Below, one piece after another: positions 18,281 to 44,514 of a stretch of 64,000 bases of DNA. Every line of letters begins with the position of its first letter. Position 1 is the first letter of the stretch. The DNA is from Mactra quadrangularis (lineage: Eukaryota > Mollusca > Bivalvia > Venerida > Mactridae): the NCBI GenBank assembly GCA_025267735.1, contig CM046299.1, positions 20,854,232 through 20,918,231 on the forward strand. The letters run 5' to 3'. Made by a program: the position numbers and the translations under genes. The notes under the pieces are model-generated. The model saw only the letters and a list, made by a program, of their open reading frames with translations, was not told the origin of the DNA and searched no databases.

Positions 18281-18355
18281 CTATTTCTTCTTATCAGCAT
18301 TTTCTTCACGTATCAAAGCAAGTACTAATTTTTTATAATCTCCGGATAAATCATC
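18281..18355 (-). CDS. Exon 22 (C-terminus, end of annexin core 2 repeat 4)
   Basis: An acceptor TTTATAG precedes [18 protein letters not shown] and a lysine-rich end, then TAG. The D-D-x-S-G-D-Y block supplies the acidic ligand that caps the Ca2+ site of repeat 4. Exon 15 is its counterpart in core 1. Phase 0. Confidence 0.88.
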   Translation of the reverse strand, partial: DDLSGDYKKLVLALIREENADKKK

Positions 18356-21300
18356 CTATAAACAAAAATATAAAAACAGGTATAACTACAATGTACAGTC
18401 ATCAATGTGATAAATAAACAATAATTACAATATATAACTTATGCTACAGTCCCATAAACATCAAAAAAGACGTGAGGGCACTGTATGGGCGCCGTGCGAT
18501 CAAGCTGCACAAGGATTAGTACGAACTCTTGTGTACCCATACGGACTGTTACATTTTTACCAGAGTCCATGAGGTGAGCCGTGGATACATGGATCAGTTT
18601 TAAAGCCAAATCGTTAACAAAATCGTGGCCAAGTATGGATTAAACTTGCATATCTTCCAGCTACGGCATTGTACGGGTGTGTTGTTTTGTGCCAAGTGCG
18701 TATACTGTCACCTTAACAAGCAAAGCTTCCCAAGGCCTACGGCTGTCTGCATGTACGGGTCTGCAACAAACCACGATTTTATGGGACTGAGGCATTAGAT
18801 TTTAAATTGTCTTAATAGATCATATTAAACAACTTTTTTACAATTTTCTCAATTGAAGTTTTTTTTTTAAGAAAGATTAATTTATGACTAAATTAAAATC
18901 TTATTTCCAAATGCTTTATACTGATGGAAATACCTGAACTTTCCACTTGTTAATTGTTTTGGACTAGGAAAAGTGGTGGTTGAAACCAAACAACTAATAA
19001 TTCTGTGAAGTGACTCTCAAAAAAGAGAATAACAGAACAGAACAGAACAGATCATTTATTTTGTTACAGTTTACACAGAACAATTCTAAAACAAAGACAA
19101 CATGACAATACAATTATCAATAATCACTAACCAACTGTCAAACTTGCCACGATGTAGCTGACCTTCAATACTGTAAATTTCAGGAAATATTTACCAATAA
19201 AAAAGTAGAAAATAAAAATGAAATCTTACCACACAGAACATTCCTAGTGTTTGTTTATACATTTTCTGGAATTCTTCTTTAATTTGAACCATATCTACAC
19301 TAGCTCTAGATACAACCACTCTACATAACGTATCATCATCTGTACCTAAACCTTTCATTGATTTATGTAACTCTGAGGCAAAATGTGCTGCCTTATTTCT
19401 TATACAACGTACTGAAAATAAATGTATAAATTAGTATAGTTTAAACATTTTTATTTTGAACTATGTATATATACAGACGTAAATGAATGATTGACATAAT
19501 ATAAATGGCATTGAAGAAATAGGTAAATATACAAAAATCATAGAGATTAATAACGTTCATTACCAAATAAATGGAAACTATTGTCGTAAAAAACACTATA
19601 TACATATGGGGTATATTACTCAATCAAATGATTTTTTACCCAAGTTCAATTACAAGTCAGTCAGTTTCTTCATTACCCTAGTATAACTTATTACACATTT
19701 CACAGATTAATACATGCATGTATAGCTAATGCATTCTCTTTCCCATATAATTGCCAATCAGTGGTAAGAGGGAGAATGGCCATAGAAATTATTTCATGAC
19801 CAAAATCCAGGAAAGTATGCCCCCACCCTTAAAAAAAACCTATGACCCCTAGATCAGTAGACTTGTGTGTTACTGACTGAGCTAGTCACACAGGCTCTCT
19901 CTTCCTTATAAAAATGTAATATAAAATAAATCATTACCAATAGTTAACATGCTCTGTTTAAGATCTCCAGACATTTCACTCTGTATTGTATCATCAATAT
20001 CTTTATTTGCTATCTTAGCATACTCCTGGAATGTTGCTCTTAATTGTGGGAAACTTCTTGATGACAGAATTACATTGAATCTGAAATAATAACACATATA
20101 CAGTGCTCATCAATATACAAAACTCATAATGCCCCCGGAAGTTGATATATTTTTCACACATTCTCATTGAAAGCAAATAATGATAACTCATCAAGGGAGA
20201 CTAGCTAGTTTTTGGAAAGGGCTATATATTGCAAAATATATTTATTTTGCTAAGACAAAGGAAGCAGGAATTATTCAATGCATATGCACATGTTTTAACA
20301 ATTGCCAATTAGTATCGATGTTTCATTGATTGGCTCTTTTGTTTACAAGTGTCATGTGACTAACTTGTAACTTCCACGTGTCAGCTGTTTGGTGTAATTT
20401 TATGGATTTGGAAGACAATACAGGTGTTTGCTGCCTGCAGACGACAGATGTCCACTGTCTTTGAATAATGTAAAGAGCATTTTCCTAGGGAGGAAATAAA
20501 AGTGTTCGTTGTTCAGAGGTTTTCCTTGTTGAGAGGAGTTCTTCAGCTCAAGTCAGACTTTTTGGCTTCGATTTGCTCAACTACCCACCTTGATTCATCT
20601 GTTCCCCATTTCTTCTCACCAGCATCATACAATGCTTGAGCATCTTGTCTAGCCTTGTTACGGTCAAACTCTTGACCTTCAGGACGATTAGCTTGTAAAC
20701 AACTGATTAATATTCTCTTAAAATGACCAGAAGTATCGCCAGCTACGTCTGCTTCTAATTCTTTACCATGGTCTGAAGTAATAAACATTAAAACAATAAC
20801 TAATAAGTCAGTATGAATAGATCAAATCAAGTTTTGTTACGTCTGTAACTATTTTATACAAAAAATCGAAATAGTTCACCATAAAAAATATTAAACATTA
20901 TCATGTGTTGGTAGTATATATTGATATACTTATATGCATTTTTATTTTTTTAATTTTGGCTCAATAAAATGTTGGTAAGGTCTCCTAAGTTTGCTTGGTT
21001 TGGTTTTTTAACTAAAATTTAAAAATCTACAAAACTACTAATTTTTACAGACTTGAAGAAGAATGTGAGGACTATGATATAAATGACAAATTTTCATCCT
21101 TGCCGATAGCCACCATGATCTAAAAGATTTATACATAACTGTTTTGAAATTTATGTCACATAATCAGTCAGTTTTAACTTTATACACTTTAAACCATTTG
21201 TGGTATACTCTGTCATTATAGCTATCAACAGTTCATTTTATTAAATAGCAGTCAATGAAATTAGTGGTTGTCTAGTTGCCTGGGCAACTACTTTTTAAAT

Positions 21301-24300
21301 CGGACAAGCCAAAATTTCTTTTGGACAACCAAAAATCTATTAACAAGAAATAGTGCTTGCTACTAAAATGACCTGTTTGGAAACCATTTTGATATCCTAA
21401 TTTTGTAGACTGAAATAGTGTGTTTACATTGTTTAAGCATGTTCCATAACACTTATTTAGGGGTTTTAAGATAAGTTACCTAAAATTGAAGCATAAGTTA
21501 AGATAAGTTACCTAAAATTGAAGCAAGTTCGATTTGAATTGTACAAAGAGATCGATTATCTATTGTACAACCTGTACATATAGAGATATCACAAATAAGA
21601 TTTCTAACTTACTAGTTTTGTACGCAGCTTTAATGTCCTTGAGTTGTTGATTTGACCTTGTACAAATGATTTCTATTAGCACTTGTTCATCTGTACCGAG
21701 ACCCTGGAAGAAATGTATATGAATATAAAATAACTGATACCAAAAACAAATGTTTTATAATTATAGTTTTTTTGTATGTTGGTCGTTTTTTTTTCTTAAC
21801 TGGTGTCCGTCTCATAAGGAAGCACTATGTGTAAACCTCAGCAATCTGGCTTAGTTTTGACCCAAGGTGACCCACTTTCAAACTCATCCAAGCAATTCAG
21901 TAGACAAGCACCCTGACAGAGTTTGATGACAATTGAATAAAAAATGTGACCACTAGATTGTTCACAAACAAATGTGGACATATGGATGACAGAAAAAAGG
22001 CGATCACAAAACCGCACTGTCACTACACGACAGGTGAGCTAAAAATATATACAAATTACATACATAGTAAAATATACACTTTAAAATATAAGCATATTAA
22101 ATACATACAATGATTTTTTCATACAACTTTGTGTTTTTATGGAAAATTTTTACAGGTATAATATGTCAACATCCAAAACTTTATAAGCCACCTTTTTAAC
22201 ATTTTTTTTTCATCCAAGGCAACATACACATGTATATATATAAACACAAGATCACAGAAGACCTTAAAACAAGTCAACAATGTTCTTACCTTAATAGCAT
22301 TATATAGATTCATAGCATCAAAGTCAGCTGGTGCCATACAAAGTCCTGCAAGTAATTTCTTAAATCCACCACTTGTTTCACTCTTTAAGTCTGATTTCAA
22401 ATCTTTACCAAACATAGTCTTAAATACTCTAACAATTTCTAACATCTGTTCATTTGATCTATAACCACATACTTTAATAATTGCTGCTTCATCTGTGCCT
22501 GTAATTGGAATCATTATCATCATATGAGAACAGTTTATTATATAATAAATCAAAATATAAATTGAAATACAATTTACAACTGTTACATAGGTTGATTTAG
22601 GAAGCTTGCGAAAACAGACCTTTTGGAAAGTAAACAAGGCCCCCTCCACTTTTGGTATTAGAACTCCCTCACAATTGTGAAGGCATCAGGTTGATTACTT
22701 CTGAAAGATCATGAAGTAATAATAATATTAATAACTTTACAAGGCTACACATTTGGATGTATATATACTTAACGAAACTTCTAAGCACGACAAAACCAGT
22801 TTTGCATGGATTATAGAAGCATGAAAACCATGCAAGCAGACAACTGTTTGTCATACACACATTTCTATTAAAAATTGGACATCAATGTTGAAAATAATAA
22901 TTTCCTTCAATATGGAAATGGTGGTACTCAGAAATTTTGTTAAGTATATAACTTTAAATGGTTGCCAAAACAGGAAGCCTGTATATTAAGTTTATAGTAA
23001 CATTATGTATCACCATATAAATGTATATCGTGAATGTCTAATATCAATCCCAGAAGCCTTTTGTAACACTATAAGTACTAAGATTACAAGAGACCAAATT
23101 TGGAACTCCTATATATGGGTTTATCCATTCATGCACAGACAGTGCAAACAAAGATTTTATACACTTTGTCGAACATCACGAAACACAGATTAAATCCTGT
23201 GGGTTTGTTTGTACGCATTGTACATTGTTTTTCATTGTAACAGAGAGCATTTGTTTGTATCGCAGGGAAAATCCAAAATTGTATTCCAGATATAGTCTAG
23301 GCCACAACAAGTTGATGATATGTTCTACAGATTTTTCTAGAAAAAAATAGGGCGAGCGAGCGAAGAAAAAAAAATCTTAATTCAGTTGCTTTATGTAGCG
23401 GTTTGACCAAATCTTTATGAGCGAGCGAGGAAATAAAAATATATTTTTTGTAAAAACCGTCAAAACAAGTAAATCTGTGAGCTAATGCTCACTAGTGATA
23501 CCCCCGCAAAAATCTAAAAATATGCGACAAACAGGAAGTAGATGAGCAAGGAGCATGAAATCGCTATACGCCACATGGGACTATGGGATGAAGCAATATG
23601 CAAAGTATTAGGCTGCTGCATGTTATAGTTGCTGAGAAAACTGTGACGGAAATTTTGTAATGGACGGACGGACGAATGCACGCACACACGGACAAGGGTA
23701 AAACAGTATACCCCCCTCTTCTTCGAAGTGGGGGTATAATTAAGGTGCAAGCAAATCCATAGAACATATGATCAATTTGTTGTGGCCCTATCAAAATATA
23801 AATATTTTACCAAATCCTTTCATTGCTTTTCTCAAGACTTCAGCATCAGCTTCAGCATTAAAATTTTCAGCAGGTACAAGTGTTGGATCTTCTTTTACAG
23901 GTTCAGATTCTAGTTTAACATCTTCATCTAATTCTTCCTCTGTTTTATTCTTTACAGCTTCAACAAAACCTTTACCAGCTGTAATAGAAAACAGTTTACT
24001 TCAATTATATACCAACTCAATAATAATATGATTTAACAACTTTAGATAACGTTCAAAGGAAAATTTAGTGAATGTGTATAATGGCATATTTCTCCCATTA
24101 GATAGCCATATTACAAACAAGTTAACTATTTAATTAACTACATTTGTATAAAATAAGTCACCATAAAAAGAACTTGAGCTAAGGTGTGTGACATTTTTTC
24201 AGACAAACTCAAAATGATAAAGATTTCTTGAAGTCTGCTGCCTAGTAAAGAAGAACTTCATTTCAAAAGGCCTCATTCCTGACTGTTGTATATTAATTAG

Positions 24301-27300
24301 TTGTTTACAAGCTAATCGTCCTGAAGGTCAAGAGTTTGACCGTAACAAGGCTAGACAAGATGCTCAAGCTTTGTATGACGCTGGTGAGAAGAAATGGGGA
24401 ACAGATGAATCAAGGTGGGTAGTTGAGCAAATCGAAGCCAATAAGTCTGACTTGAGCTGAAGAACAAATCTCAACAAGGGACATCACTGAACAACAAACA
24501 CTTCAATTCTCCTCCTAGAAAAAAGCTCTTTGAATTACTTGAGGACAATGGACATCTGTTGTCTGTGAACAGCAGACACATGTATTTTTACAATTACATT
24601 AAATGGTTCTAATGGGTATACAAATGTACTTACATTTACTGGACATATCTGGTGGTTCACCTCCATTAACCAAAGATAATATAGCGTCCCTATAATCACC
24701 AGATATATCATCCTATAAATAGACAAGAAATCTAATACGGTAACCACATTTAAGCCTGATTTTCATCAAGATCTGACCACAAATGACAGAGATATCCAAC
24801 ATATTAAAAACTTAAACACAAAAAGTACAAAGGGAAATAATCCATAATAAAGCCAGGTAGAGTTGTGGTTACTTTCTAATTCTGTTCATCACATGTTATG
24901 TTATCATTGTATGAAGTTTCATAAAGATCTAACAATAAATGGCAGAAATATATGGTAAAGAAAAAACTTTAACGCAATTGTTAACAACATCAGATGCCTA
25001 CCTGGCCAACCTCCCAAAAACCCACCCGCCCTGGTTTTGCCAAACTATATGCCAAATGTTTTCGTTGAAAAATCCGGCTAATAAAAGAGCTTTTTCATAA
25101 AGACTATGATACTTGCAACATTCATGATTATGATGATGATTATTTTTATCATTATATACAATATTTGTATAGAGAGGGCTCTTTTCATATCAAAACTACC
25201 CTCAAAAACATTTTACAATTATATTCATATAATTATGAATTAATGATATCAATCGTCCAGAATTTTTTTTTAATTAAAAGAATGTATACAAATGAACAGT
25301 AAATATCAGTGATCAATTTGGTGATCATGATGTTGATTTAGATAAAATCTTCTATAATGGACTATATTAACTTACAGCAATATATTGTGATAAAGTCTGT
25401 CCTGTTAATTTTTCAAATTCTTCTTTTATTTGAACCATATCAATCTCACATCTTGAAACAACAACTCTAACTAATGTATCATCATCAGTACCGATACCTT
25501 TCATTGTCTTCTGTAGTTGACGAGCAAAATGATTGAACTTGTGTTTTACACATCGTACTGAAAAACGAGAACAGACAATTGTTGCTAGAATTGTGTTATA
25601 CACATTGTACTAAGAAAACAGTAAACTGTCGCTAGACTTGTGTTTTACACATCGTACTGAAAACAAGAATAGAAAATGTACATGTAGTTAGACTTGCGTT
25701 TTACATGTTGTACTAAAAAAAGAGGACAGAAAAATGTTGCTAGACTTGTGTTTTACCATTCTCATTCCCAGAGTCTAGTAGGATTCTCAATACTAGCTAG
25801 TACAGTGTAACCTCTGCAGAGCGACTTTCGGCGGAGTTTGAAAAAATTGCCGCTCTGCAGAGGTGTCGCTCTGCAGAGGTAGACTTTTCTACCGATCACG
25901 AAAACGCCCGTTTTCGGTCCGGAAAACTGGCCTTTATCCGTTCCGTAATGTAAGTTAAATAGCGAGCGCTGATCGACAAAAGTAAAAAAAGTTTAAATAA
26001 GACTATGAAGTTTTTTAAATAAATAATTATAACGGTTGACAATTCCTAGCATGAAGGTTAGTTTTATGCTATAGAAAGCAATATACTAGAGAAATCGATT
26101 CCGTTACTGTCAAATGTTTTTATACTTGTCTAATGGCGAATACTATTTAGCATGAATTATCTTCGTCTTTTCGGGAGTAAATATCAGATTTTATCTTAAG
26201 GTGGGTCGGTACCTTACTCGGAGGGAAAAGCGAAAAAAATATTAAGTTCACCGATTATAATAAAAGTTAGCGAGCAGATACCTTCATGCTTCTTGTTTGT
26301 TTTTCTGGTAACCTTAGCGACGTTGTCGTTTATTTTCACGACGTCACGGACGTCACAATGGTTCGCGCTAAAAACAGGCATGCAAGTACATTAAACCCAT
26401 ATATTTAAAGTATTGAATGTCCTAGGACAAAGATAATTATACCAAAATGTTTCTGAAATGTTGTTGCATACGAATATTTTGTTCCGATTATCTAAATATC
26501 ACGTCAGTCGTAAAGATTGTACATTTCATTACTGAATTTAGGGTTTTCACGCCTAAAAGTTTTCACCAATTGCCGAGTTATAACGCTAATTTTCAAATAA
26601 TGCAGAACGGTGGTCAGATTCTTATTGCGATTTTTGGAAACTACACACTTTTTGTGTCATTTTAATGAAATAAAAAAGGAAAGTGAACGTTCTCAGTTTT
26701 TCACAATATCGCTTTCAAAGTAAAATTACCATCAAAACAACGACGTTAATATTACGTTACGCTGATGTTGTGATTTTGCGTTATGTATGTAATTTTCGTG
26801 TAAATTTAATTTTGTAGTTTTTTTCCAGTTCTTAATTAATTTCTTGTGACACTCTTGTGACTGATCTGTTCAAAATTAGTCAATCAAAGTTCGCTTCTCC
26901 TTATTTTTGCAACAAATGCTTTAATCACAACGTCAGCGTAACGTTATATAAACGTCGTTGAAATGAAGGTAATTTTACTTTGAACGCGATATTGTGAAAA
27001 ACTGAGATCGTTCACTTTCTATTTTTATTTTATTAAAATGACACAAAAAGTGTGTTGATTTCAAAAATCGCGATAAGAATTCGACCACCGTTCTGCTTTA
27101 ATATGAAAATAAACATTATAACCCGGCAATTGGTAAAACCGTTTAGACGTGAAACCCTAAATTCATTGATGAAATGTACAATCTTTACGATTGACATGAT
27201 ATTTGGATAATCGGAACATAATATTTGTATGCAACAACATTTCAAAAACATTTCGGTATAATAATCATTGACCTCGGACATTCAATATCTTAAATATGTG

Positions 27301-36300: not shown

Positions 36301-39300
36301 ATTGTAATAATTTTCTACAAAATAGCTTTTATGCTATTTTGTGGTCTCGGTTATAATCATATTGATAATCAAACAAGCAAAACTTAAAAGCATTTCAATA
36401 CAAACAGTTATCAAAATTTTAAATAAAAAGCTGTTCAGGAGGCCTACAAAAAGATATTTTCATTTTTTATAATACATGTATGTCTACATTGGGGGAGACG
36501 GCAGAGTATACTTTTGATTGTCAATGTACCAACTATATACAAGCAGTAACAAATATAATGTGAGACAAACAGCATACAACAGACTGGAATTACATGTACA
36601 CATAGGCTGCCAGCATGCAAAAGTTCCATTTTGTGTGTATATAATTTTAAAAAAATTTGGGGAGAGGGTGACTCTTTCATGCGGGCACCCTGTTAGGTCT
36701 ACATACAATACCATTATGAGCATTTTATGGAACGCTTATTTTACTAAGAAGGTCTAGCCAAACACATGCATAAGATACAAAGCGTAACAAAAATAAATAT
36801 GAATACATACATATACAGATATAATTCAACACTACATTGGTGTATAATGCTATTTCTAAAAACATACATGTACTGTGATGTACATACAGTCAGTATGTAA
36901 AAGTTATACATTAAGTCACAGCATATTCCAGATACATTGAAGTTATGGCAAATTGTATTTTACTTATTTTCAAAATGTAGTCACCTAGATACTAGTACCT
37001 AGTTTTTTACTCCATGTGACCTGAATTTTGTAACATTTGTATAATAATATTACATGTATAATTCATTGCTTTGTTAGCAAGATATCATTCTGAGAACATT
37101 AAACCCACAGACAGATTGACAAGGTCTGATGATGGTTTGAGATAAGGGTCCGTCTGCTGTATTAGAATGCATTTTGAGCAGACCCAGGGATGTTGACAAA
37201 GTCAATCTTATTTACTCCTTTTTAACTATACAATTTATATACAATAGTACCCCAAAAAGACAAAAAAGGAAAGAAAACGTAGCAAGGAATTGCTATGACA
37301 TAATATAGACTATATACATGTGTATTTCTAAGTTGATTACACAAGGCAAAAGCATATTGCAAGCTTAGCGCAAAACAGTGGTAACTCACTCTTTTTTTTA
37401 AGTTAAGTTACAACTGTTTTGCCCTAAGCCCGCAAAATATAAAATATAATGTTGCTGAATAGAATCTAAGAACACTATCTACACATAGGTTAATACAATA
37501 AAGCAGAAAACAACAAACATGCAGTATAAAATATCACAAAGAAAGTAGACTAACATTCAAAGACATATCATATCAAAAGAACACATTTGTACTGATTGTT
37601 AAAGTTTTTTACATCAAAATTATTTTACATCTAAAATGTGAGGCAAAAAAGTTCCAACTAATGAGCAAATAGAGACTTAAAGGTAGAATTTAAAACTTAA
37701 AAAAAACCAATTAAATTAAGTAGTTAAAAAACAAATAAATTAAGTAGTTAAGTTTGTATTGTCTATAAAGACATAGATAACAGTACCCATGTCTCTGTTA
37801 TCAATAACGATATAAGAGATTCATAAAATTGCTATGATTTAAGATGATAAAACTAACAATAATAATAATATCTCACTAAAATGCGTATTTTTTTAAATAT
37901 ATTCAAATTGATTCGCAATTTATTTAAATCTAAAGGGACCTGCGCTCAAATATGACACATTTAATGGTTTTCTACGCCAAGATTTAGGCCTACCTCCTCC
38001 AGGACTGATGGGGTTTAGAGGTGGATCTTTATAAACTGGAACTTCTACTTTCTCTGGCTCAGGGGCAGGAGCTGGTGCGGGTGCTATAGCTGGCCGTTGT
38101 TGTTGTGACTTCAACATTGAACGTAAATCTCCAACTGTCACATGACGAGTATCTGGATTACAGCTCTATAATGAGATAAATGATACATGATATGTTTACA
38201 TCCATATTTTTAAAATAAATCTATATCAAGTAACATGAGGGTTGCCCACAAGACTGTAGTAAGTGCATTGCGTTAAAAGGCTACTACAGTCTTGCAGACA
38301 ACCCTTGATTACTAATAGTAAGTAAAATGAAGACAGTGATTATTCTAAGTTGTAAGAACTTGTATCACAGTTAGGCTAAAATAAATTTGTACACAATATT
38401 TATACCAGTACATGTTTACTGATCTGTGGTGCTTTTCACAAAAATTCTTACGAAAAAAGTTATCGTAAGTCAATTTCATATAATTAGCAGTTCAAAGCCA
38501 GATGAATAAATACGAAGATTTTTTTCGTAAGAATTTTTGTGAAAAGAACCAAGATCAGTAAACATGTACTGGCAAATGGGTTAATAAAGCAGTTTTAATA
38601 AAATACGGTCAGAATAGTCTAGTTCCAAATATTTTACTCTATGGGCATTGTATTTAGTCTGGGCAATGTTTTTGACATATTGTTTTTCTATACCATGATA
38701 AATATTGTACAGTACTTGTCTTAAATTTTCTTAAGCAATTGCCCGATTTATAATACAAAAAATGTATTAAATACCGATAAAAGGCAAAATTATCGACTAA
38801 TCCAACTCTATGAAATTAGTCATTTTAAACAGCCTGAATCAACTCTTATTATTACCCGATTGCTTATATAAGTGTAATTCAACATTTTTAACTGTTTTCT
38901 GAGTGAACTGTTGACCTGTCAATAGGTTTGACTGTTTCCCGCACATGCTGTGACGCCACACAATGTTATTCGAACTGTTACTGTACTGATATAAGAGGAA
39001 GTAACTGCAACAGGATTTAAAACTTTACCAGACGCTTTCAAATACACCAAGCGTCCATTAATCTTGATTTAGCAGACGTAAACATGTCAAGTACTGCTAA
39101 AATAGTAATTGATCAGGTAATAAAACAGTTATTTCATGTTTGATTTGGGAACAGTCAAACTATTGTCCCTTGGTGTCAGGAAGAGTGTTTTGAAATGTTT
39201 TCCTTGGCATACGCATCAGGAAACAGTTCAAAACACTATTCCATCCATCTCCGGCCAACAGTTTGACTGTTCCCAAATGGCATATAAAATAACTGTATAC

Positions 39301-42300
39301 TTGTTCTGGGCTTCAAGCTTGTGGGTAAAGGTTAAGACTGATGGTATCAAAGATGGTTGAATAAATTAATAGATCTAATATTTACACATACCTGAAGCAT
39401 ATTTTCTGTAAGGTAGCCATACTGTGTGGTATAAGGATTACAAATACCAGGTTGTCCAAGATTGACGGTACCTGGCACACCCTGCATCATATTGGGTGTA
39501 GTACCTCCCCATACATTGATCTGGGTACCAGAATAGTTGGTTGGATTAAATGGACCATCTGGAATGGGCGGAGCTGAAATAAAAGGTTGGCATGTTAAGC
39601 ATGTAAGACATAATGAACAAGTAAATCTGTGAGCTAATGCTCACTAGTGATACCCCCGCAAAAATCTAAAAATATGCGACAAACAGGAAGTAGATGAGCA
39701 AGGAGCATGAAATCGCTTTACACCACATGGGACTATGGGATGAAGCAATATGCAAAGTATTAGGCTGCTGCATGTTATAGTTGCTGAGAAAACTGCGACG
39801 GAAATTTTGTAACGGACGGACAGACGGAAGGACGGACGCACGCACGGACAAGGGTAAAACAGTATACCCCCCTCTTCTTCGAAGTGGGGGTATAATAATG
39901 ATAACATAATAATATACTGAGGACAGTCTTCTTCTTCTTTGTTGGTACAACACCATAATTCGAGTCACAGCAATGAAACGTGATGCCTCTCACGATTCTT
40001 CAACATTTCTGTATAGTTGATGGTCAAAAGGAGTTGTATTGGCCATATTTCTTTTCTAGCCTGTTCCAATAAATGACATCTGAGGACAGTGATTATGCCA
40101 TTAGATGCAGACCACAAGATTGGTTGATTTGATTTTTTGTTTTATAATCCTTTTCAAGGGTTGAATTCTTGTAAGGTGGACTGTTTATACAACCATCTTA
40201 TCAGAGTCACAAAAACAAAACTCCAAACCTCAGTTAGAAACTGTCTAAAAAACTTACAACCTTCTACCCTCCAGAGGTTCCAGTGATTCAAAGTTCAGTG
40301 ATCTTAACAACTCAACCATACAAATGGGTCAGACCCCAGTATCAACAGTTCTAGGTTTAAAGTCAGCCCAGACAACTGAGATTTTTCTATAAAAGCATAT
40401 GAGTGACAGCTGTAAGTCTATGTGTTGTGGTTACTCTTTGTGCCATCAATTAAAAGTCAGTTATACACCATAGAATGACCAGTTTCCCAAGCATATCCCT
40501 ACCTAGCGCTTAGTCCTCTGGTACCTTTTTAACATCAAAAGTAATAAGTGTGTAATATCAAATCGAGGGCACCAGGGGGTGAAGTGCCAGCTAGCATTAA
40601 GCTTAGGAAAGTAACAAGCAGATTTAAAGAAAACTGTTTGTGGTAAAAAATGACTGTATGTTGTTTCTTTGACCTAGCATAGGTACTGGAAGGATATGAG
40701 GTAATTGTAACTAAAGCAAATAGTCAGAATCATTTCTAATGATTAAATACTTACGATTCTCACCAAATGCACCAGTACTCAATCTATCAGCAACACCACC
40801 ACTGGCCCAGGCTTCTTTAGGTGTTTTTCTCGTTGGAGATTTAGATCTAGACCTTGATCGTAAAGTTTTAGGTGTAGGCTTATTCTGAAATACAAATTAG
40901 TAATACAATTTAATTGAATATCATTACTTAACTTAAAACCAATAGTTAAGTACATAAATTGCAAGTAACCAATGGAAAATCATACATGTATGTACCGTTA
41001 GTAAAATTGCAAACAAAGCAATATATTTTTCAATCCCCTAACAAGCTAGTCTAATTTTGATTTTACTTTTTGGAATTATGAAAACAAAGTCATTTTTCAT
41101 TTTATAGCTGAAAAGCACACACTACAGATTATATTCCCTTGTTATTTACACTTTTTTCAATTTTAAGGTAAATTTTGTACCTAGAAAAAAATCCATCCAT
41201 TTGAGTTTTGAAAATTAACAATTCCAATACATTTATGTAACAAAGTTTTATGCTACACAAAAACAATCACAAACCTTTTTCGTCTTGGCTTTATTTGAAC
41301 CAACAGATTTATGACTTTTTAAAGTAGAATCAGTATATTCTAGACCATCAGAATCATAGAGTTCTGATGTATCGACGTCAGATGATGATGAGGTGAAAGG
41401 TATAGGACTTGAATTGATCTTTCCTATATCATCGACAATAAATGCTTTTGTGAACACATCGCTTTCTTTAACACCATCCCTAGAAATAAATATAAAAGAT
41501 ATTTCAGAGTTTTTTTTTAGCAATACATGAGCAAAAACTGTAAGTTTTTCGAAAGCCTGAAACTCCTGAAATTAATGATATTACAATGTTTACGCATAGC
41601 CAAAGCACCTTCCCTGAAGCCCAAAAATCCTGAATTTCAGGACCATTATTGAAAACTTTTACCAATAGCAACTTGATGCAGTACTATTTAACAGTAGTAC
41701 TGAACTCCCTGCAAATCTTTACCTTCAAGATAACTGTCATGGTCTGCTCATGAATCAAGGGCTCATTTGATTAAATCCAGTTTTGTAATGGCAACCTATG
41801 GCTACAGGATAAAATGGTTTTCTCTATTTAGGGATTCAGGTCAAGCTTTGGGAGTCTGAAATTACTTGCTGCCAGGTGAAAGCAACTAGCTAATTGGACT
41901 TGTAAACTTTAAACTGACACAATAGTCAATGTAGGATTTATCAGACAGTATCTTGATATTGTAAATAAACTCTGACTTTTTGCAGGTTTGTCACTAACTG
42001 TCCCAAAGGAATCCCTAGTCAGTTACTACGGGATTCCTCCTTAACATTAGGGATTCCTCCAATAAAAGACAAAAAATTTGGATACATATGTGCAGTCACT
42101 AATTGTAGAAAACCATTCAAGGCAGTTTTGCGAATCACTGGAATCTCTCCCAAGTTTTTGGGATCCTCAGAATCCCGGTACACTGTTAGTGTTGAACCCT
42201 ACTTAATGTGATTGATGAATCAGGTTTAAGTCAATATCTAGGACAAAACAACCAACTAAATATTTCTTTTAACTCACCTTGTTACAGCAATGGCTTTTAT

Positions 42301-43111
42301 AGTACGCTTTCCTTCTTTCAAGGTAAAAGGATCTGTGTATCTATGAGTGACCTCTCTACCACCCACTTTACGTTGAAATGGATTAGGTTTCGTTCCATCG
42401 GCAGTAAAATATATTTTTGTACTAGGTGTTTCTGTAATTGAAGAACACATTAAAATTGATGTTGAAAAACTGAATTCATAAAAACAAATAAATGCAGGAA
42501 CATGTATGAAATGCAAGGTGCATTAATCAAGCTGTTGTTGTGGTGTAGTGGTTTCAGACTCAACTTTAAATCTGGAGATCCGTGTTCAAGACAGAGTTGA
42601 CAAGCTCTAGTTGTGAATAATTAAAAACTTAAACTGTACATTTCTTGGCAGCTCTTATATATAAATATAACTAACTTAACTAACTGATATTTTTTAAAGA
42701 TGATCTAGGAAATAATTTCTTGTGTTATTTCAGGAAAAATTTTGTTGTAAGACAAGTAAAAATCTATCTTTATAAACATGACAGACTGTCATCATCTTAC
42801 ATATAAATCAACAGCAAACATTTTTGTTACACATATTTTTCATATTCTTGATAAATGAAGTTTGACTGTTGACAGACTTCACTAATTTGTGGAAAGTTTA
42901 AGATAAACTGAAAGTTCAACATCCAACAGCTCAAGTCATCACAGTATTATACACAGGATTTACATTATTGTTTTAGTGTTTTAAAATACAAGTACTTACC
43001 ACAGGTTATTTCAACTAGAGTAGTAGTGTCAATATGATTTGTAGCTTGTCCATAAACCTGTCTCCTTATAGGAGAAATTAATGGCGGACAAACTGCCCCT
43101 GCACTAGGCAT
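18281..43111 (-). CDS. DZANK1-like N-terminal region fused to two annexin cores (22 coding exons)
   Basis: Joining the 22 minus-strand exons listed individually gives a continuous frame of 1,107 codons from ATG at 43109-43111 to TAG at 18281-18283; each junction has GT and AG and the codon phase closes exactly. Domains in order: residues about 30-108 chitobiase/hexosaminidase C-terminal-like (Fn3-type) fold; 158-180 Arg/Ser-rich; 280-303 Pro/Ala-rich; 312-378 a block I recall from the middle of vertebrate DZANK1; 380-425 Lys/Glu/Pro hinge; 445-752 annexin core 1; 759-796 acidic linker; 797-1103 annexin core 2. Annexins bind acidic phospholipid through Ca2+ held by GxGT loops and a distant acidic residue; these are visible in repeats 1, 2 and 4 of both cores. 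DZANK1 zinc ribbons and ankyrin repeats are absent. No signal peptide or membrane helix is seen. The protein is probably cytosolic and membrane-binding. Alternative: two neighbouring genes joined by read-through splicing. Confidence 0.78.
18447..18789. mobile_element. GC-richer element with CAGTCCCATAAA ends in intron 21
   Basis: CAGTCCCATAAA at the left and TTTATGGGACTG at the right are exact inverted repeats about 340 bp apart. The interior is clearly richer in G and C than the intron around it and has no long ORF. The superfamily is not assigned, since no clear target duplication was found. Confidence 0.6.
19028..19052. repeat. (GAACA)n microsatellite
   Basis: Four or five tandem GAACA units in intron 21. 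Confidence 0.8.
19230..19411 (-). CDS. Exon 21 (annexin core 2, repeat 4)
   Basis: The exon is 182 bp, phase 1 in and phase 0 out, and reads (V)[14 protein letters not shown] then [25 protein letters not shown] is the canonical type II Ca2+-binding loop. The donor is GTG|GTAAGA. Exon 14 has the same length and borders in core 1. Confidence 0.9.
19751..19901 (-). mobile_element. tRNA-derived SINE, antisense, 5' part
   Basis: On the minus strand it reads CTAGCTCAGTCAGTAAC (A box), an eroded B-box region, then GGCATACTTTC and CCATTCTCCCTCTTACCA as in the SINE at 32510. It is truncated before the tail and lies in intron 20. Confidence 0.65.
19938..20080 (-). CDS. Exon 20 (annexin core 2, repeat 3, second part)
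   Basis: The exon is 143 bp and reads [20 protein letters not shown], then a Lys/Asp helix and [13 protein letters not shown]. The E of SEMSG is the capping acidic residue of repeat 3. The last G joins TA of the next exon to make Val. Confidence 0.9.
20543..20588 (-). other. Possible alternative end of exon 19 (intron retention)
   Basis: Reading past the donor gives [14 protein letters not shown] and a stop, which would truncate the protein in core 2 repeat 3. The inverted copy at 24290-24590 keeps the same open tail with a single residue change (K to N). That hints at, but does not prove, constraint. Confidence 0.3.
20589..20772 (-). CDS. Exon 19 (annexin core 2, end of repeat 2 and start of repeat 3)
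   Basis: The exon is 184 bp and encodes [20 protein letters not shown], a linker rich in Asn/Arg/Gln, and [12 protein letters not shown]. The repeat 3 loop is KWGTD rather than GxGTD, as is usual for that repeat. The donor is CAAG|GTGGGT. If it is not used, the frame continues 14 codons to a stop at 20543. A copy of the 3' part of this exon sits in reverse orientation at 24290-24590. Confidence 0.9.
21613..21703 (-). CDS. Exon 18 (annexin core 2, repeat 2)
   Basis: A 91-bp exon encoding [20 protein letters not shown] and [16 protein letters not shown] completes the Ca2+ loop begun by AIK at the end of exon 17. The final A joins AC of exon 19 to give Asn. Confidence 0.9.
22290..22498 (-). CDS. 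Exon 17 (annexin core 2, repeat 1 and start of repeat 2)
   Basis: A 209-bp exon: (G)[19 protein letters not shown], a helix with [18 protein letters not shown], then a loop ending NLYNAIK. KSETSG supplies the acidic cap for the GFGTDE loop split across the exon 16/17 junction. The acceptor is AATTACAG and the donor AAG|GTAAGA. Confidence 0.9.
22716..22762 (-). mobile_element. Fragment of the (ATT)n-tailed retroelement
   Basis: The complement of GTGTAGCCTTGTAAAGTTAT followed by an ATT-type run matches the tails at 7714-7815 and 34791-34865. It lies in intron 16. Confidence 0.45.
23464..23740. repeat. 277-bp dispersed repeat (ATACCCCC family), copy 1
   Basis: It is nearly identical to 39616-39896. 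Shared blocks are CTCACTAGTGATACCCCCGC near one end, a CGGACGGACG tract, and a terminal hairpin made of ATACCCCCCTCTTC and GAAGTGGGGGTAT. It lies in intron 16. Overlapping minus-strand ORFs here are shared by both copies and come from the repeat itself, not from a gene. Confidence 0.8.
23811..23978 (-). CDS. Exon 16 (linker between cores and start of annexin core 2)
   Basis: A 168-bp exon: [20 protein letters not shown], an acidic/Pro linker of about 20 residues, then [19 protein letters not shown]. FNAExDAExLRKAMKG is the helix A and loop start of an annexin repeat 1. It parallels the start of core 1 in exon 10. The donor is TTTG|GTAAAA. Confidence 0.9.
24290..24590 (+). pseudogene. Inverted copy of exon 19 and its downstream intron
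   Basis: On the plus strand this reads [20 protein letters not shown], then [12 protein letters not shown], the former donor GTGGGT, and [14 protein letters not shown] followed by a stop. About 300 bp match the minus-strand segment 20411-20714, very closely in the exonic part. It lies in intron 15, antisense to the gene, so it cannot be used as an exon by that transcript. Its frame is still intact, which suggests recent origin or gene conversion. Confidence 0.85.
24634..24712 (-). CDS. Exon 15 (end of annexin core 1, linker start)
   Basis: A 79-bp exon: [20 protein letters not shown] then PDMSSK. DDISGDY closes the repeat 4 Ca2+ site and matches exon 22. Here a donor AAAT|GTAAGT continues into the second core instead of ending the protein. 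This is the clearest evidence that the two cores share one protein. Confidence 0.9.
24726..25082. repeat. About 300-bp dispersed repeat, copy 1
   Basis: It shares long near-identical stretches with 31132-31434 in the same orientation, for example AAAGCCAGGTAGAGTTGTGG and AATGGCAGAAATATATGGTA. One end has AAAAATCCGGCTAA. Both copies lie in introns of the annexin gene (introns 14 and 10). Confidence 0.8.
25376..25557 (-). CDS. Exon 14 (annexin core 1, repeat 4)
   Basis: A 182-bp exon identical in length and phase to exon 21: (V)[40 protein letters not shown], and a helix ending QYIA. MKGIGTD is a canonical Ca2+ loop. The acceptor and first exon bases have been copied several times upstream (25561-25756 and beyond). 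Confidence 0.9.
25561..25756 (-). repeat. Tandem copies of the exon 14 acceptor region
   Basis: A unit of about 55 bp contains the minus-strand order CAG or TAG, TAC(G/A)A(T/C)(G/A)TG and AAAACACAAGTCTAGC. It is repeated upstream of the real exon 14 acceptor, with copies near 25590, 25630, 25685 and 25738. The series resumes at 28046-28140 after a large insertion. Each copy resembles the 3' splice site plus the first exon bases, so these are potential decoy acceptors. Confidence 0.75.
25803..28016. mobile_element. pogo/Tigger-like nonautonomous element with TA flanks
   Basis: The termini CAGTGTAACCTCTGCAGAGC and its counterpart AGCAGAGGTTATACTG are inverted repeats, with TA on both sides (25801-25802, 28017-28018). 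Several GCTCTGCAGAGG or GCTCG..AGAGG subterminal repeats occur at each end. CAGTxxAACCTCT ends with TA duplications fit pogo/Tigger-type Tc1/mariner elements. It carries no transposase and is interrupted by a long foldback element. Confidence 0.7.
26196..27501. mobile_element. Foldback element with about 580-bp inverted arms and TTAA ends
   Basis: The arms 26196-26774 and 26924-27501 are imperfect inverted copies around a 150-bp spacer. The ends are TTAAGGTGGGTCGGTACC and its complement, so TTAA is present at both borders. The mirrored ORFs that include FLKCCCI on each strand are the same sequence in the two arms. TTAA borders are compatible with a piggyBac-type insertion, but the transposase group is not proven. 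Confidence 0.8.
28046..28140 (-). repeat. Continuation of decoy acceptor array beyond the insertion
   Basis: GTGTTTTACTTGATGTACTG and AGACTTGTGTTTTACACTTG on the plus strand continue the series seen at 25561-25756. The nested element therefore split a pre-existing tandem array in intron 13. Confidence 0.65.
28462..28660. repeat. Direct repeat on the 3' side of exon 13
   Basis: It contains GATGGCATCATCATTTTACC, TTGCTATGA, ACTTGCCATGTTTGT and AAATGATGACATCA in the same order as 29045-29250. The two copies bracket exon 13. Confidence 0.6.
28663..28840 (-). CDS. Exon 13 (annexin core 1, repeat 3)
   Basis: A 178-bp exon: [20 protein letters not shown], a helix starting [12 protein letters not shown], and [14 protein letters not shown]. 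In core 2 the same stretch is split between exons 19 and 20, so an intron was gained or lost between the cores. The final G joins exon 14 to make Val. Confidence 0.9.
29045..29250. repeat. Direct repeat on the 5' side of exon 13
   Basis: Partner of 28462-28660. Shared blocks include TTGCTATGATA/TTGCTATGA and AAGTACAAATGTGCACA. A local duplication in introns 12 and 13. Confidence 0.6.
29296..29444 (-). CDS. Exon 12 (annexin core 1, end of repeat 2)
   Basis: A 149-bp exon: [20 protein letters not shown], a helix with SLVQANR, and a linker ending DAKELYQ. SDTSG provides the acidic cap for the repeat 2 Ca2+ loop. Acceptor TTTTCAG; donor CAA|GTAAGT. Confidence 0.9.
30316..30520 (-). CDS. Exon 11 (annexin core 1, end of repeat 1 and repeat 2)
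   Basis: A 205-bp exon: [20 protein letters not shown], then [20 protein letters not shown] and a helix ending IRVYKE. KSETSG caps repeat 1 and MKGLGTDE opens the repeat 2 Ca2+ site. The donor is GAAA|GTAAGT. Confidence 0.9.
30762..30870 (-). mobile_element. tRNA-derived SINE head, antisense
   Basis: The minus strand reads GTTGCCTAGTTGGTAGTGC (A box) and GGTTCATATCCCGGC (B box) with about 40 bases between, the layout of a tRNA-derived promoter. The anticodon arm region is not a functional tRNA. It lies in intron 10. Confidence 0.55.
31132..31434. repeat. About 300-bp dispersed repeat, copy 2
   Basis: Partner of 24726-25082, in intron 10. The copies are collinear except for an indel near the AAAAATCCGGCTAA end. 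Confidence 0.8.
31620..31796 (-). CDS. Exon 10 (start of annexin core 1, repeat 1)
   Basis: A 177-bp exon, phase 0 at both ends: [40 protein letters not shown], and a helix ending AMFGK. It opens the first annexin core directly after the Lys/Glu/Pro hinge of exon 9. Acceptor ATAATTTCAG; donor AAG|GTAATT. Confidence 0.9.
31992..32063. mobile_element. Small hairpin MITE (GGGTTGCxxGCAAGACTGTA), copy 1
   Basis: GGGTTGCTTGCAAGACTGTA and its near-complement at the other end, ending GGGCAACCC, form a 24-bp stem. ACGAAAT lies outside both ends, possibly a target duplication. A second copy is at 38238-38305. Confidence 0.7.
32510..32805 (+). mobile_element. tRNA-derived SINE, near full length
   Basis: The head has GGCTAGCTCAGTTAGTAG (A box) and GGTTCGATTC (B box, 32563-32572). 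The body has GCAGTTGTCAGTCACTGACA and GAGTAGGTTGACTGACAG, and the tail is GCTACGGCGTTAAACCC. The other copies in the window share this body. It is sense to the plus strand in intron 9 of the minus-strand gene. The head is not flanked by tRNA 3' processing features, so it is a SINE, not a tRNA gene. Confidence 0.85.
32898..33064 (-). CDS. Exon 9 (Lys/Glu/Pro-rich hinge)
   Basis: A 167-bp exon: [16 protein letters not shown], an alternating Lys/Glu run, [12 protein letters not shown], and [12 protein letters not shown]. It is low complexity and joins the DZANK1-like part to the annexin cores. The first Arg codon is completed by exon 8 (C plus GT), and the end is in frame with exon 10. Donor AAT|GTATGT. 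Confidence 0.85.
33388..33789. mobile_element. MITE with CAGGGCTCGAATT ends
   Basis: CAGGGCTCGAATTTAA on the left and TTAATTTGAGCCCTG on the right are inverted. ATTTTC lies on both sides. The interior has repeated AACTCGCAAA / TTTGCGAGT dyads. It lies in intron 8. Confidence 0.7.
33883..33958 (-). CDS. Exon 8 (second part of the DZANK1-like middle block)
   Basis: A 76-bp exon: [20 protein letters not shown] then KPGIP. It follows PKMGK of exon 7 in frame. From memory, vertebrate DZANK1 has a similar block (helix, PRMGK, then a beta-strand-like stretch) before its ankyrin repeats. Donor CCAC|GTAAGT. Confidence 0.82.
34528..34631 (-). CDS. Exon 7 (first part of the DZANK1-like middle block)
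   Basis: A 104-bp exon: [34 protein letters not shown]. The pattern HxxAHLxxYAxxxxEF with PxMGK is what I recall from DZANK1. Acceptor TTTTTAG; donor AAAG|GTAAGA. Its phase needs one G from the exon 6 donor at GGAG|GTAGGC. Confidence 0.82.
34791..34865 (+). mobile_element. (ATT)n-tailed retroelement 3' end
   Basis: AGGTCCAAATGGAAGATTGG, GTGTAGCCTTGTTAAATAAA and an ATT run match the copy at 7714-7815 in the other orientation. Confidence 0.55.
35409..35482. repeat. Imperfect hairpin
   Basis: TTTGTTTATTTCAGTGTAAG and its near-complement CTTACACCGAAATAAACAAA are separated by about 30 bp. The origin is unassigned. Confidence 0.55.
35870..35962. mobile_element. 93-bp hairpin MITE with 8-bp target duplication
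   Basis: Arms of 38 bp beginning CACAGGCTGTCGGCGTC match at 36 of 38 positions. The octamer ATGTAACA flanks both ends exactly (35862-35869 and 35963-35970). It lies in intron 6. Confidence 0.82.
36102..36130. mobile_element. Tc1-like terminal inverted repeat, single end
   Basis: TA followed by CAGTACCAACCAAAAGTTTG GAGACA resembles Tc1-type ends. No matching opposite end was found nearby, so this is a fragment or solo end. Confidence 0.5.
37363..37429. repeat. Hairpin, 24-bp arms
   Basis: GCTTAGCGCAAAACAGTGG and its counterpart ending GTTTTGCCCTAAGC match at 22 of 24 positions with a short loop. It lies in intron 6 and is probably a very short MITE. Confidence 0.6.
37920..37993 (-). other. 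Alternative 3' extension of exon 6 with in-frame stop
   Basis: Read-through of the exon 6 donor adds about 25 codons and a TAA stop. The product would contain only the chitobiase-like domain and linkers. The Trp-Arg-Arg in the extension resembles a motif I recall at this place in DZANK1, so the extension may be a real alternative exon rather than intron. Confidence 0.35.
37994..38165 (-). CDS. Exon 6 (Pro/Ala-rich linker)
   Basis: A 172-bp exon: [20 protein letters not shown], a glutamine run, alternating Ala-Pro, and [13 protein letters not shown]. The acceptor is ATTATAG and the preferred donor GGAG|GTAGGC, which leaves a G that completes Gly with exon 7. If the donor is skipped, the frame continues [20 protein letters not shown] to a stop at 37920-37922, giving a short annexin-free isoform. 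A weaker in-phase donor GCAG|GTCCCT lies further on. Confidence 0.82.
38238..38305. mobile_element. Small hairpin MITE (GGGTTGC family), copy 2
   Basis: GGGTTGCCCACAAGACTGTA and the inverted TACAGTCTTGCAGACAACCC flank a short loop. Same family as 31992-32063. It lies in intron 5. Confidence 0.7.
38405..38572. mobile_element. 168-bp palindromic MITE
   Basis: The arms of about 53 bp run from CCAGTACATGTTTACTGATC through TTCACAAAAATTCTTACG. The inner 27 bp are perfectly complementary. The loop is about 60 bp. It lies in intron 5. Confidence 0.75.
39392..39573 (-). CDS. Exon 5 (Gly/Pro/Asn-rich region)
   Basis: A 182-bp exon: [34 protein letters not shown], and [17 protein letters not shown]. 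It has single cysteines only, so no zinc ribbon (which needs CxxC pairs) is present where DZANK1 would carry them. Acceptor TTATTTCAG; donor CAG|GTATGT. Confidence 0.82.
39616..39896. repeat. 281-bp dispersed repeat (ATACCCCC family), copy 2
   Basis: It is nearly identical to 23464-23740, with an expanded ACGGACGG tract and the same terminal hairpin ending GGGGGTATAAT. It lies in intron 4. Confidence 0.8.
40482..40610. mobile_element. MITE copy (CTCTGGTACC family), fullest
   Basis: The left half CCTAGCGCTTAGTCCTCTGG and the right half CACCAGGGGGTGAAGTGCC then GCTTAGG are imperfect inverted copies. Copies are also at 1-110 and 1872-1995. It lies in intron 4. Confidence 0.6.
40755..40884 (-). 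CDS. Exon 4 (Arg/Ser-rich linker)
   Basis: A 130-bp exon: [20 protein letters not shown] then [20 protein letters not shown]. The RSRSRSKSP run is a plausible phosphorylation or nuclear-speckle type segment, but this is low complexity. Acceptor GTATTTCAG; donor AATC|GTAAGT. Confidence 0.8.
41275..41479 (-). CDS. Exon 3 (end of chitobiase-like domain, acidic Ser-rich tail)
   Basis: A 205-bp exon: [20 protein letters not shown], then Ser/Asp/Thr-rich sequence with [11 protein letters not shown] and a lysine-rich end. The DGxxxSxVxTxxF strand is the last strand of the Fn3-type fold shared with DZANK1 and chitobiase C-terminal domains. Donor AAAAAG|GTTTGT is the weakest of the set. Confidence 0.82.
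41983..42201. mobile_element. MITE, uninterrupted relative of 13068-13788
   Basis: It contains AAAGGAATCCCTAGTCAGTT, a second GGGATTCCTCC block and TTTTTGGGATCCTCAGAATCC, in the same order as the right part of 13068-13788. It lies in intron 2. Confidence 0.6.
42278..42431 (-). CDS. Exon 2 (core of the chitobiase-like/Fn3-type domain)
   Basis: A 154-bp exon: [20 protein letters not shown], a loop, [20 protein letters not shown]. The patterns [10 protein letters not shown] and [10 protein letters not shown] are the hallmark strands of the CHB_HEX_C/Fn3 domain at the start of DZANK1. Acceptor AATTACAG; donor CAAG|GTGAGT. Confidence 0.87.
43000..43111 (-). CDS. Exon 2 of transcript / coding exon 1 (start of DZANK1-like region)
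   Basis: The ATG at 43109-43111 begins [20 protein letters not shown], then [17 protein letters not shown]. The start follows a 5'UTR acceptor (TATTGTAG at about 43119) by seven bases. AGxVCxPxIxPxR followed by NHIDxxTLxE is the N-terminal signature I associate with DZANK1. Donor TGTG|GTAAGT. Confidence 0.85.
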
Positions 43112-44420: not shown

Positions 44421-44514
44421 ATGAAATAATAAACAAAAAGAGTTACCATTTCGTAAGAAGCGAAAAGAAACATAAGTTTCTGCAGTCTGGTTACTGGTCT
44501 CATTTTCTACGCAA

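What the first reader, a model, noticed from the sequence alone, without database searches (positions are those of the whole stretch)
18281..43111. A DZANK1-like protein fused to two annexin cores
The sequence shows 22 minus-strand exons that join in frame without exception. The first eight carry the chitobiase-like/Fn3 domain and the middle block I know from DZANK1. The last thirteen carry eight annexin repeats with usable Ca2+ sites. Zinc ribbons and ankyrin repeats, which define vertebrate DZANK1, are missing; the annexin cores occupy the place of the ankyrin repeats. I know of no described protein with this architecture. If real, it would couple DZANK1's presumed scaffold role (linked to cilia and vesicle traffic in vertebrates) to Ca2+-dependent membrane binding. 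Domain identities rest on motif reading and memory; the joint is an inference from splice phases.
Basis: partly seen in the sequence, partly recalled or inferred. Interest (0 to 1): 0.92.

Follow-up and report, generated by a model that had tools for sequence, protein, structure and literature searches.

The report
DZANK1 paralogue fused to annexins
A clam gene joins the front half of DZANK1, a protein that vertebrates use in cilium-linked vesicle transport, to two annexin cores with predicted calcium sites; the same fusion occurs from rotifers to octopus and, with one core and ankyrin repeats, in sea urchins and acorn worms, and the protein would likely tie membranes to dynein light chain complexes when calcium rises.

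Summary
Twenty-two minus-strand exons (43111-18281), all introns GT-AG, join into 1,107 residues: Fn3_assoc/CHB_HEX_C, a disordered stretch, a small alpha/beta block, a K/P-rich linker and eight annexin repeats. It is most likely one gene: whole-length relatives occur in molluscs, an annelid, a priapulid and rotifers, often named "annexin A6-like", and eight of them lie on transcript-sized contigs. Echinoderms and hemichordates have DZANK1 front, ankyrin and one annexin core, without zinc ribbons. The clam keeps a separate DZANK1; four introns match the fused gene in place and phase. Trees of the two halves each group the fused proteins (100/95; 84/90), fitting one old fusion; rival topologies are not rejected. 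A GTQ-I/V motif is the best conserved stretch of the disordered region; DZANK1 has TQT in the same order of parts. DZANK1 pulls down the dynein light chain LC8 (PMC4617706), and PDB 11xu lists both proteins. I propose a Ca2+-switched membrane tether for LC8 complexes; this function is inferred. My paper searches found no description of the architecture.

The parts
43000..43111 (-). exon 1 (coding): MPSAG start, first part of the Fn3_assoc/CHB_HEX_C domain; intron after it phase 1, same place and phase as in the clam DZANK1 gene
42278..42431 (-). exon 2: core of the Fn3_assoc/CHB_HEX_C domain (residues 33-102 span exons 1-3); intron after it phase 2, shared with DZANK1
41275..41479 (-). exon 3: end of the Fn3_assoc/CHB_HEX_C domain, start of the disordered region
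40755..40884 (-). exon 4: disordered, basic region
39392..39573 (-). exon 5: disordered region with the conserved motif
39506..39538 (-). motif [11 protein letters not shown] (residues 213-223), predicted LC8 (dynein light chain) docking site; same order of parts as TQTVGLFYPS of DZANK1
   Evidence: LC8 function inferred
37994..38165 (-). exon 6: rest of the disordered region, start of the middle block; phase 1 intron shared with DZANK1
37920..37993 (-). possible read-through of exon 6 to an in-frame stop (342-residue short form); use untested
34528..34631 (-). exon 7: helical half of the small alpha/beta middle block; phase 0 intron after it shared with DZANK1
33883..33958 (-). exon 8: strand half of the middle block; the intron after it (phase 1) has no match in the DZANK1 gene
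32898..33064 (-). exon 9: K/P/E-rich linker, in the place where ambulacrarian relatives have ankyrin repeats
31620..31796 (-). exon 10: annexin core 1 (residues 441-756), repeat 1
30316..30520 (-). exon 11: annexin core 1
29296..29444 (-). exon 12: annexin core 1
28663..28840 (-). exon 13: annexin core 1
25376..25557 (-). exon 14: annexin core 1
24634..24712 (-). exon 15: end of annexin core 1
23811..23978 (-). exon 16: linker between cores, start of annexin core 2 (residues 789-1105)
22290..22498 (-). exon 17: annexin core 2
21613..21703 (-). exon 18: annexin core 2
20589..20772 (-). exon 19: annexin core 2
19938..20080 (-). exon 20: annexin core 2
19230..19411 (-). exon 21: annexin core 2
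18281..18355 (-). exon 22: end of annexin core 2 and stop

Best explanation
This 22-exon gene encodes a predicted 1,107-residue protein in which a DZANK1-type amino half (Fn3_assoc/CHB_HEX_C domain, a conserved GTQ-I/V motif and a small alpha/beta block) is joined to two annexin cores, and it likely works as a Ca2+-switched membrane tether that would dock the dynein light chain LC8 and its partners on phospholipid membranes. Origin (supported by two trees, shared introns and an intermediate architecture, not proven): a DZANK1 copy, duplicated before protostomes and deuterostomes parted, gained a four-repeat annexin core behind its ankyrin repeats and lost its zinc ribbons; the protostome branch lost the ankyrin repeats and doubled the annexin core. 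Mechanism (inferred): Ca2+ makes the cores bind acidic phospholipid; the disordered front, paired by an LC8 dimer through the GTQ motif, presents the Fn3-like domain and the middle block to transport or cilium-base partners. Two cores on each chain and two chains per LC8 dimer would allow bridging of membranes or a high-avidity grip. The NINL link of vertebrate DZANK1 should be absent, because NINL binds the zinc ribbons.
For: Shown: one open frame over 22 exons with GT-AG introns; Pfam domains. Relatives cover 97-100% of the length in molluscs, the annelid Owenia and bdelloid rotifers, 96% in Priapulus; 55 of the 120 listed of 912 matches carry Fn3_assoc or CHB_HEX_C and annexin by precomputed Pfam (counted by eye), and 42 of 43 in the front-half search. 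Eight relatives with 99-100% coverage (P0006, P0007, P0009, P0010, P0018, P0023, P0035, P0038; 1,043-1,110 residues) have longest contigs of 3.4-5.2 kb although the gene spans 24.8 kb here, so these should be transcripts (the sources do not say so). Intermediate: 13 of 28 proteins carry ankyrin and annexin (12 named as echinoderm or hemichordate, one name cut off); 11 of the 13 also show Fn3_assoc, none lists a zinc ribbon, and the 11 that I scanned have one core each. The clam has a separate DZANK1 on C9, and four introns inside the shared blocks match in place and phase. Trees: front halves, 27 fused against 8 DZANK1, 100/95; annexin cores, 27 fused against 12 others, 84/90. Motif: 10-residue windows up to 0.90 conserved against a median of 0.35 in the disordered region; GTQ in 49 of 50 rows; TQT in 16 of 16 rows of DZANK1 and ambulacrarian proteins. 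DZANK1 pulls down DYNLL1 and DYNLL2 (PMC4617706, passages and sections 6 and 11 seen), and PDB 11xu lists DZANK1 (chain G1) and DYNLL1 (chain E1). The clam genome has nine near full-length LC8 matches at 92-94% identity to human DYNLL1.
Against: No RNA or protein from this animal was available. The clam motif is GTQIN, not the canonical TQT with D/E/P after it, and many TQT peptides do not bind LC8 (PMC6607443, passages). The motif is conserved over 10-13 residues, more than LC8 alone should need, so another partner is possible. That it corresponds to the DZANK1 TQT rests on order of parts, not on one joint alignment. The AU tests do not reject rival trees: ambulacrarian fused with deuterostome DZANK1 p 0.198, protostome fused with protostome DZANK1 p 0.197, protostome octads with vertebrate A6 p 0.165 and 0.429, ambulacrarian cores with A7-type cores p 0.651 with a likelihood above the free quick tree. 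In the 66-row quick tree rotifer cores lay outside the other fused cores, and four cores of two listed proteins without the front (Capitella P0058, Plakobranchus P0044) lay inside the fused group; they were not in the 39-row tree. The intron after exon 8 is not shared with DZANK1. What complex 11xu is, and which part of DZANK1 touches DYNLL1, I did not see. No membrane binding was tested.
Confidence: 0.5

Rival explanations
1. It is a true fusion, but the front half targets an annexin-A6-like membrane organiser to a site through the Fn3-like domain and the conserved motif without LC8; the GTQ-I/V motif docks some other, unknown partner.
For: The motif is conserved over 10-13 residues with a tryptophan or phenylalanine after it in most rows, more than LC8 needs; a +2 asparagine is not among the preferred proline, aspartate and glutamate (PMC6607443, passages), and the motif quoted in PMC3078936 has T or V at +1 (abstract). 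Eight annexin repeats are recognised.
Against: The corresponding stretch of DZANK1 is a canonical TQT, DZANK1 pulls down DYNLL1/2 (PMC4617706), and 11xu lists both proteins.
Confidence: 0.33
2. The fusion arose more than once: ambulacrarians joined annexin to a DZANK1 copy independently of protostomes.
For: Ambulacrarian forms keep ankyrin and one core, protostome forms lack ankyrin and mostly have two cores; AU tests do not reject it (p 0.198 and 0.197; p 0.651).
Against: Both halves group the fused proteins (100/95; 84/90); most of both kinds begin MPSAG where the DZANK1 rows begin MTAG or MAAG, with exceptions in rotifers, Priapulus, Lineus and Glandiceps; no zinc ribbon is listed for either kind.
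Confidence: 0.13
3. Two neighbouring genes: a short CHB_HEX protein ending at 37920 and a separate eight-repeat annexin starting near exon 10, joined by wrong gene models.
For: An in-frame stop follows exon 6 and 3.4 kb separate exons 6 and 7; annexin-only models of the octad exist (e.g. P0041, 646 aa).
Against: Exons 7-8 hold the DZANK1 middle block, whose start lies at the end of exon 6; the exon 6/7 intron is shared with DZANK1; whole frames on transcript-sized contigs and in several phyla.
Confidence: 0.03
4. It is simply the invertebrate orthologue of vertebrate annexin A6 with an added front half, as the database names say.
For: Eight repeats; names 'annexin A6-like'; AU tests of protostome octads with vertebrate A6 not rejected (p 0.165; p 0.429).
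Against: Core 1 and core 2 of the clam are 60% identical to each other and 58-60% to the single ambulacrarian core (Diadema, Glandiceps), against 47-52% to the two cores of a sawfish A6; the tree puts vertebrate A6 outside (84/90).
Confidence: 0.07

Closest known systems
[quoted passage not shown]
   Same: Fn3_assoc/CHB_HEX_C front, a TQ motif before the middle block, middle block with SPG-x-G and PK/PR-x-GK elements in most rows, four introns of the same place and phase
   Different: no zinc ribbons, no ankyrin repeats, two annexin cores instead; DZANK1 itself is a separate gene in the same clam
Ambulacrarian DZANK1-ankyrin-annexin proteins (e.g. Diadema P0122, Patiria P0126, Glandiceps P0133)
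   Same: front half, TQ motif, middle block, annexin core at the end, no zinc ribbon listed
   Different: keep ankyrin repeats, have one annexin core (11 of 11 scanned)
Annexin A6 (vertebrate)
   Different: no DZANK1-type front in the listed A6 rows; cores fall outside the fused group in the tree
LC8 (DYNLL1/2) client proteins
   Same: short TQ motif in a long, probably disordered region between folded domains
   Different: +1 isoleucine, +2 asparagine; binding untested

Membership tests
DZANK1 | Fn3_assoc / CHB_HEX_C_1 domain at the amino end | tested here: met
   Pfam 2.1e-12 and 1.5e-9; phmmer to PDB DZANK1 4.1e-29
DZANK1 | middle block between zinc ribbons and ankyrin | tested here: met
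   alignment and trees
DZANK1 | double zinc ribbons | tested here: not met
   no zinc ribbon in Pfam scan at E up to 1
DZANK1 | ankyrin repeats | tested here: not met
   no ankyrin in Pfam scan at E up to 1
Annexin | four-fold (or eight-fold) annexin repeat core | tested here: met
Annexin | type II Ca2+ sites GxGT-(38-40)-D/E (pattern recalled) | tested here: met
   6 of 8 repeats at spacing 39; repeats 3 and 7 read KWGTDES and did not match the pattern
Annexin | Ca2+-dependent phospholipid binding | not testable with these tools
   needs protein
Annexin A6 (vertebrate orthologue) | core 1 and core 2 each group with the A6 core of the same number | tested here: inconclusive
   A6 cores outside the fused group at 84/90, but p 0.165 and 0.429 for octads together
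LC8 client | canonical TQT anchor in a disordered stretch | tested here: not met
   clam reads GTQIN; TQT at this place in DZANK1 and ambulacrarian rows; the stretch has low model confidence, as disorder would give
LC8 client | binding to LC8 | not testable with these tools
   no complex prediction or assay on hand

The most novel reading that the evidence does not exclude
An unrecognised protein family of the bilaterian ancestor: a DZANK1 paralogue that swapped its zinc ribbons (NINL link) for annexin cores and became a Ca2+-gated, LC8-paired membrane adaptor, kept in molluscs, annelids, nemerteans, rotifers, a priapulid, echinoderms and acorn worms and lost on the way to vertebrates, where DZANK1 and the annexins went separate ways.
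Probability: 0.35. Interest if true: 0.8.

Novelty: new variant of a known kind. Interest (0 to 1): 0.62.

Why it matters
It shows a direct covalent link, found in seven animal phyla here, between a cilium and dynein-light-chain scaffold family and Ca2+-dependent membrane binding. If right, it would suggest that vertebrate DZANK1 works next to membranes, explain a large set of proteins named 'annexin A6-like', and turn the unknown function of DZANK1's Fn3-like domain and middle block into a question testable in bivalves and sea urchins.

Tried and rejected
Two separate genes: rejected on shared introns, whole-length homologues and transcript-sized contigs. Orthology to vertebrate A6: not supported, not excluded. 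A fold search with the full Ruditapes model listed only annexin-containing chains among its 50 rows, so it says nothing about the front half; the same with the Latimeria DZANK1 model (mean pLDDT only 59.5) listed matches in its ankyrin part only and did not show what 11xu is. Asking PDB for DYNLL1, TUBB4B, DYNLRB1 and ACTB showed 11xu in the DYNLL1 row; I saw 11xu in no row shown for the other three, where each row lists the example chain and up to seven further codes, and only the best 60 rows for tubulin and actin, so it is probably not a doublet-microtubule or dynein-dynactin entry, but this is weak. Paper searches for the architecture: annexin + DZANK1 gave 3 papers (listing only, one mention of annexin in each); annexin + chitobiase + mollusc gave none; two wider searches gave 2,283 and 451 papers, of which I saw 20 and 10 in the listings, none on this; DZANK1 since 2021 gave 29 papers, listing only; DZANK1 with axoneme or cryo-EM gave 434, 8 listed. 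The library holds only openly licensed PMC papers. Two LC8 papers (PMC5746249, PMC12057147) were searched for TQI without a find (passages only). The bdelloid protein P0062 has lost the TQ (GTPV). Pfam's Myb_DNA-bind_7 match (8.8e-8, residues 603-662) lies inside an annexin core and also appears in annexin A6 rows, so I take it as a chance likeness. In one search my automatic finder missed the middle block in two rotifer rows (P0104, P0068), which then entered the front-half trees with the front domain only; Seison was left out as a long branch. Protein searches are word-limited, scored only about 8,000 candidates, and the list is capped, so absence from vertebrates, arthropods, nematodes and cnidarians is not shown.

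Full report
The observation. Each of the 21 introns begins with GT and ends with AG, and the joined frame of 3,324 nt codes for 1,107 residues with one stop at the end. Exon borders were picked by eye from splice sites and frame; no RNA of this animal is on hand. Pfam gives Fn3_assoc (residues 33-102, 2.1e-12), CHB_HEX_C_1 (26-98, 1.5e-9) and eight annexin stretches (1.5e-193); no zinc ribbon or ankyrin appears at E up to 1.

One gene, widespread. A search of a large protein collection gave 912 matches among 7,991 scored candidates, 120 of them listed. Proteins aligned over 97-100% of the length come from bivalves (Ruditapes 81%, Dreissena 80%, Mya 77% identity), a chiton, gastropods, octopods, the annelid Owenia and bdelloid rotifers; Priapulus reaches 96% of the length at 41% identity, with a partial third core in its model. 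A second annelid, Paralvinella, has an incomplete second core. Many are named 'annexin A6-like'. By my count of that table, 55 of 120 carry Fn3_assoc or CHB_HEX_C together with annexin by precomputed Pfam. Eight full frames (P0006, P0007, P0009, P0010, P0018, P0023, P0035, P0038) have longest contigs of 3.4-5.2 kb, while this gene spans 24.8 kb, so they should be transcript assemblies; the sources do not say so. Searching with residues 1-440 alone gave 43 proteins, 42 of which carry both parts; the other one is DZANK1 of the feather star Antedon. Two nemertean rows (Lineus P0074, Tubulanus P0078) have one annexin core.

The link with DZANK1. Searching with residues 1-430 of the sea urchin relative P0122 gave 28 proteins: 13 with ankyrin and annexin (12 named as echinoderm or hemichordate, one with its name cut off; 11 list Fn3_assoc, two do not), 6 fusions already seen (five octopods, one unnamed), and 9 with zinc ribbons and no annexin, DZANK1-type. 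None of the 13 lists a zinc ribbon; the 11 scanned have one annexin core each. The middle block of the clam protein aligns with the DZANK1 block that lies before the ankyrin repeats. This clam also has its own DZANK1 elsewhere (G000 contig C9): stretches for the Fn3_assoc domain, zinc ribbons in four places, the TQT motif, the middle block and ankyrin repeats lie in order. Four introns inside the shared blocks have the same place and phase in both genes, read by eye: exon 1/2 phase 1, exon 2/3 phase 2, exon 6/7 phase 1, exon 7/8 phase 0; the intron after exon 8, at the edge of the block, is not shared.

Origin. A tree of the front halves (35 rows chosen by me, 181 columns; Seison left out as a long branch, two rotifer rows with the front domain only) puts 27 fused proteins on one side and 8 DZANK1 on the other with support 100/95; with Seison in, the support is 91/96. 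Inside DZANK1 the Antedon row goes with vertebrates (91/86) and the clam row with the nemertean (87/30, weak), as expected if the two genes parted before protostomes and deuterostomes did. A tree of annexin cores (37 of 109 extracted cores plus two PDB sequences) puts the 27 fused cores on one side of a branch at 84/90, with vertebrate A6, A7, Hydra XII and other annexins outside. Left out of it were, among others, the second core of Priapulus and the cores of two listed proteins without the front, Capitella P0058 and Plakobranchus P0044; in the larger quick tree of 66 rows these four cores lay among the fused ones, and rotifer cores lay outside. Whether those two proteins lost the front or have incomplete models is open. 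Holding all fused cores of the larger set together, with those four in, gave a better likelihood than the free search (by 8.97, p 0.671). AU tests do not reject the rivals (p 0.165-0.651). I therefore favour a single old fusion without calling it shown. The step order DZANK1 copy - annexin core added behind ankyrin - zinc ribbons lost - ankyrin lost and core doubled in protostomes is the simplest reading of the architectures. Both clam cores are about equally close to the single ambulacrarian core (58 and 60%) and 60% identical to each other. Three core-internal introns (exon 11/12 and 18/19 phase 1, 13/14 and 20/21 phase 1, 14/15 and 21/22 phase 0) match between cores; the others differ (by eye).

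What it may do. In zebrafish and cells, DZANK1 acts with NINL in dynein-based vesicle transport, sits at the cilium base, binds NINL through its zinc ribbons, and pulls down the light chains DYNLL1 and DYNLL2 (PMC4617706; abstract, passages and sections 6 and 11 read). The main text of that paper does not use the words motif or TQT. The tightest LC8 peptide from phage selection is VSRGTQTE (PMC3078936, passages; PMC6607443); TQT alone does not guarantee binding (PMC6607443, passages). A PDB entry, 11xu, lists DZANK1 (752 residues, four chains) and DYNLL1; its title and contacts were not seen. The clam genome has nine near full-length LC8 matches at 92-94% identity to human. From this I infer that the fused protein keeps the LC8 dock (as GTQ-I/V) and the Fn3-like and middle blocks, drops the NINL dock, and adds Ca2+-dependent membrane binding: six of eight repeats have GxGT with D/E 39 residues on, and repeats 3 and 7 read KWGTDES, which I recall as the usable repeat-III form of annexin A5. 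Membrane binding and LC8 binding are both untested.

Naming and print. [quoted passage not shown] Searches of openly licensed PMC papers found no description of the architecture (listings only).

Noticed in passing
24290-24604 versus 20397-20713: Intron 15 holds an inverted copy (318 aligned positions, 88%) of the 3' part of exon 19 and its following intron, so the pre-mRNA could fold exon 19 onto intron 15, around exons 16-18; it might favour circular RNA or double-stranded RNA.
   Followed up: partly
26196-27501: A fold-back element inside intron 13: two arms of about 580 nt, 89.5% identical in inverted orientation, with 147 nt between them.
   Followed up: partly
39616-39896 and 23464-23740; 31123-31409 and 24723-25008: Two families of dispersed repeats, each with two copies in introns of this gene (95% and 92% identity).
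   Followed up: no
44514-45167, 46519-47043, 57859-59214, 61032-61786: Tandem arrays with units of 26, 39, 60 and 64 bases; the 39-base array has 98% matches.
   Followed up: no
G000 contig C15, about 43233000-43367000: Six places with near-equal annexin scores at regular steps, which look like a row of copies of another annexin gene.
   Followed up: no
L019, L018, L017, L020 (G000:C9:34090001-34130000): The clam's own DZANK1 gene with zinc-ribbon stretches in four places and ankyrin repeats.
   Followed up: partly
residues about 246-256 of the Ruditapes relative P0001: A second conserved island, YGYLTEQM, in the disordered region of the protostome fusions (mean 0.72); no partner known.
   Followed up: no
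37920-37993: Read-through of exon 6 gives an in-frame stop and a 342-residue form without middle block and annexin cores; use unknown.
   Followed up: no
P0058 (Capitella), P0044 (Plakobranchus): Two listed annexin proteins without the DZANK1-type front whose cores fall among the fused cores in the 66-row quick tree: lost fronts or incomplete models.
   Followed up: no
G000 contig C13, e.g. 7159124-7174387 and 9426161-9457062: Eight of the nine near full-length matches to LC8 (DYNLL1) lie on one contig, in what look like repeated groups.
   Followed up: no
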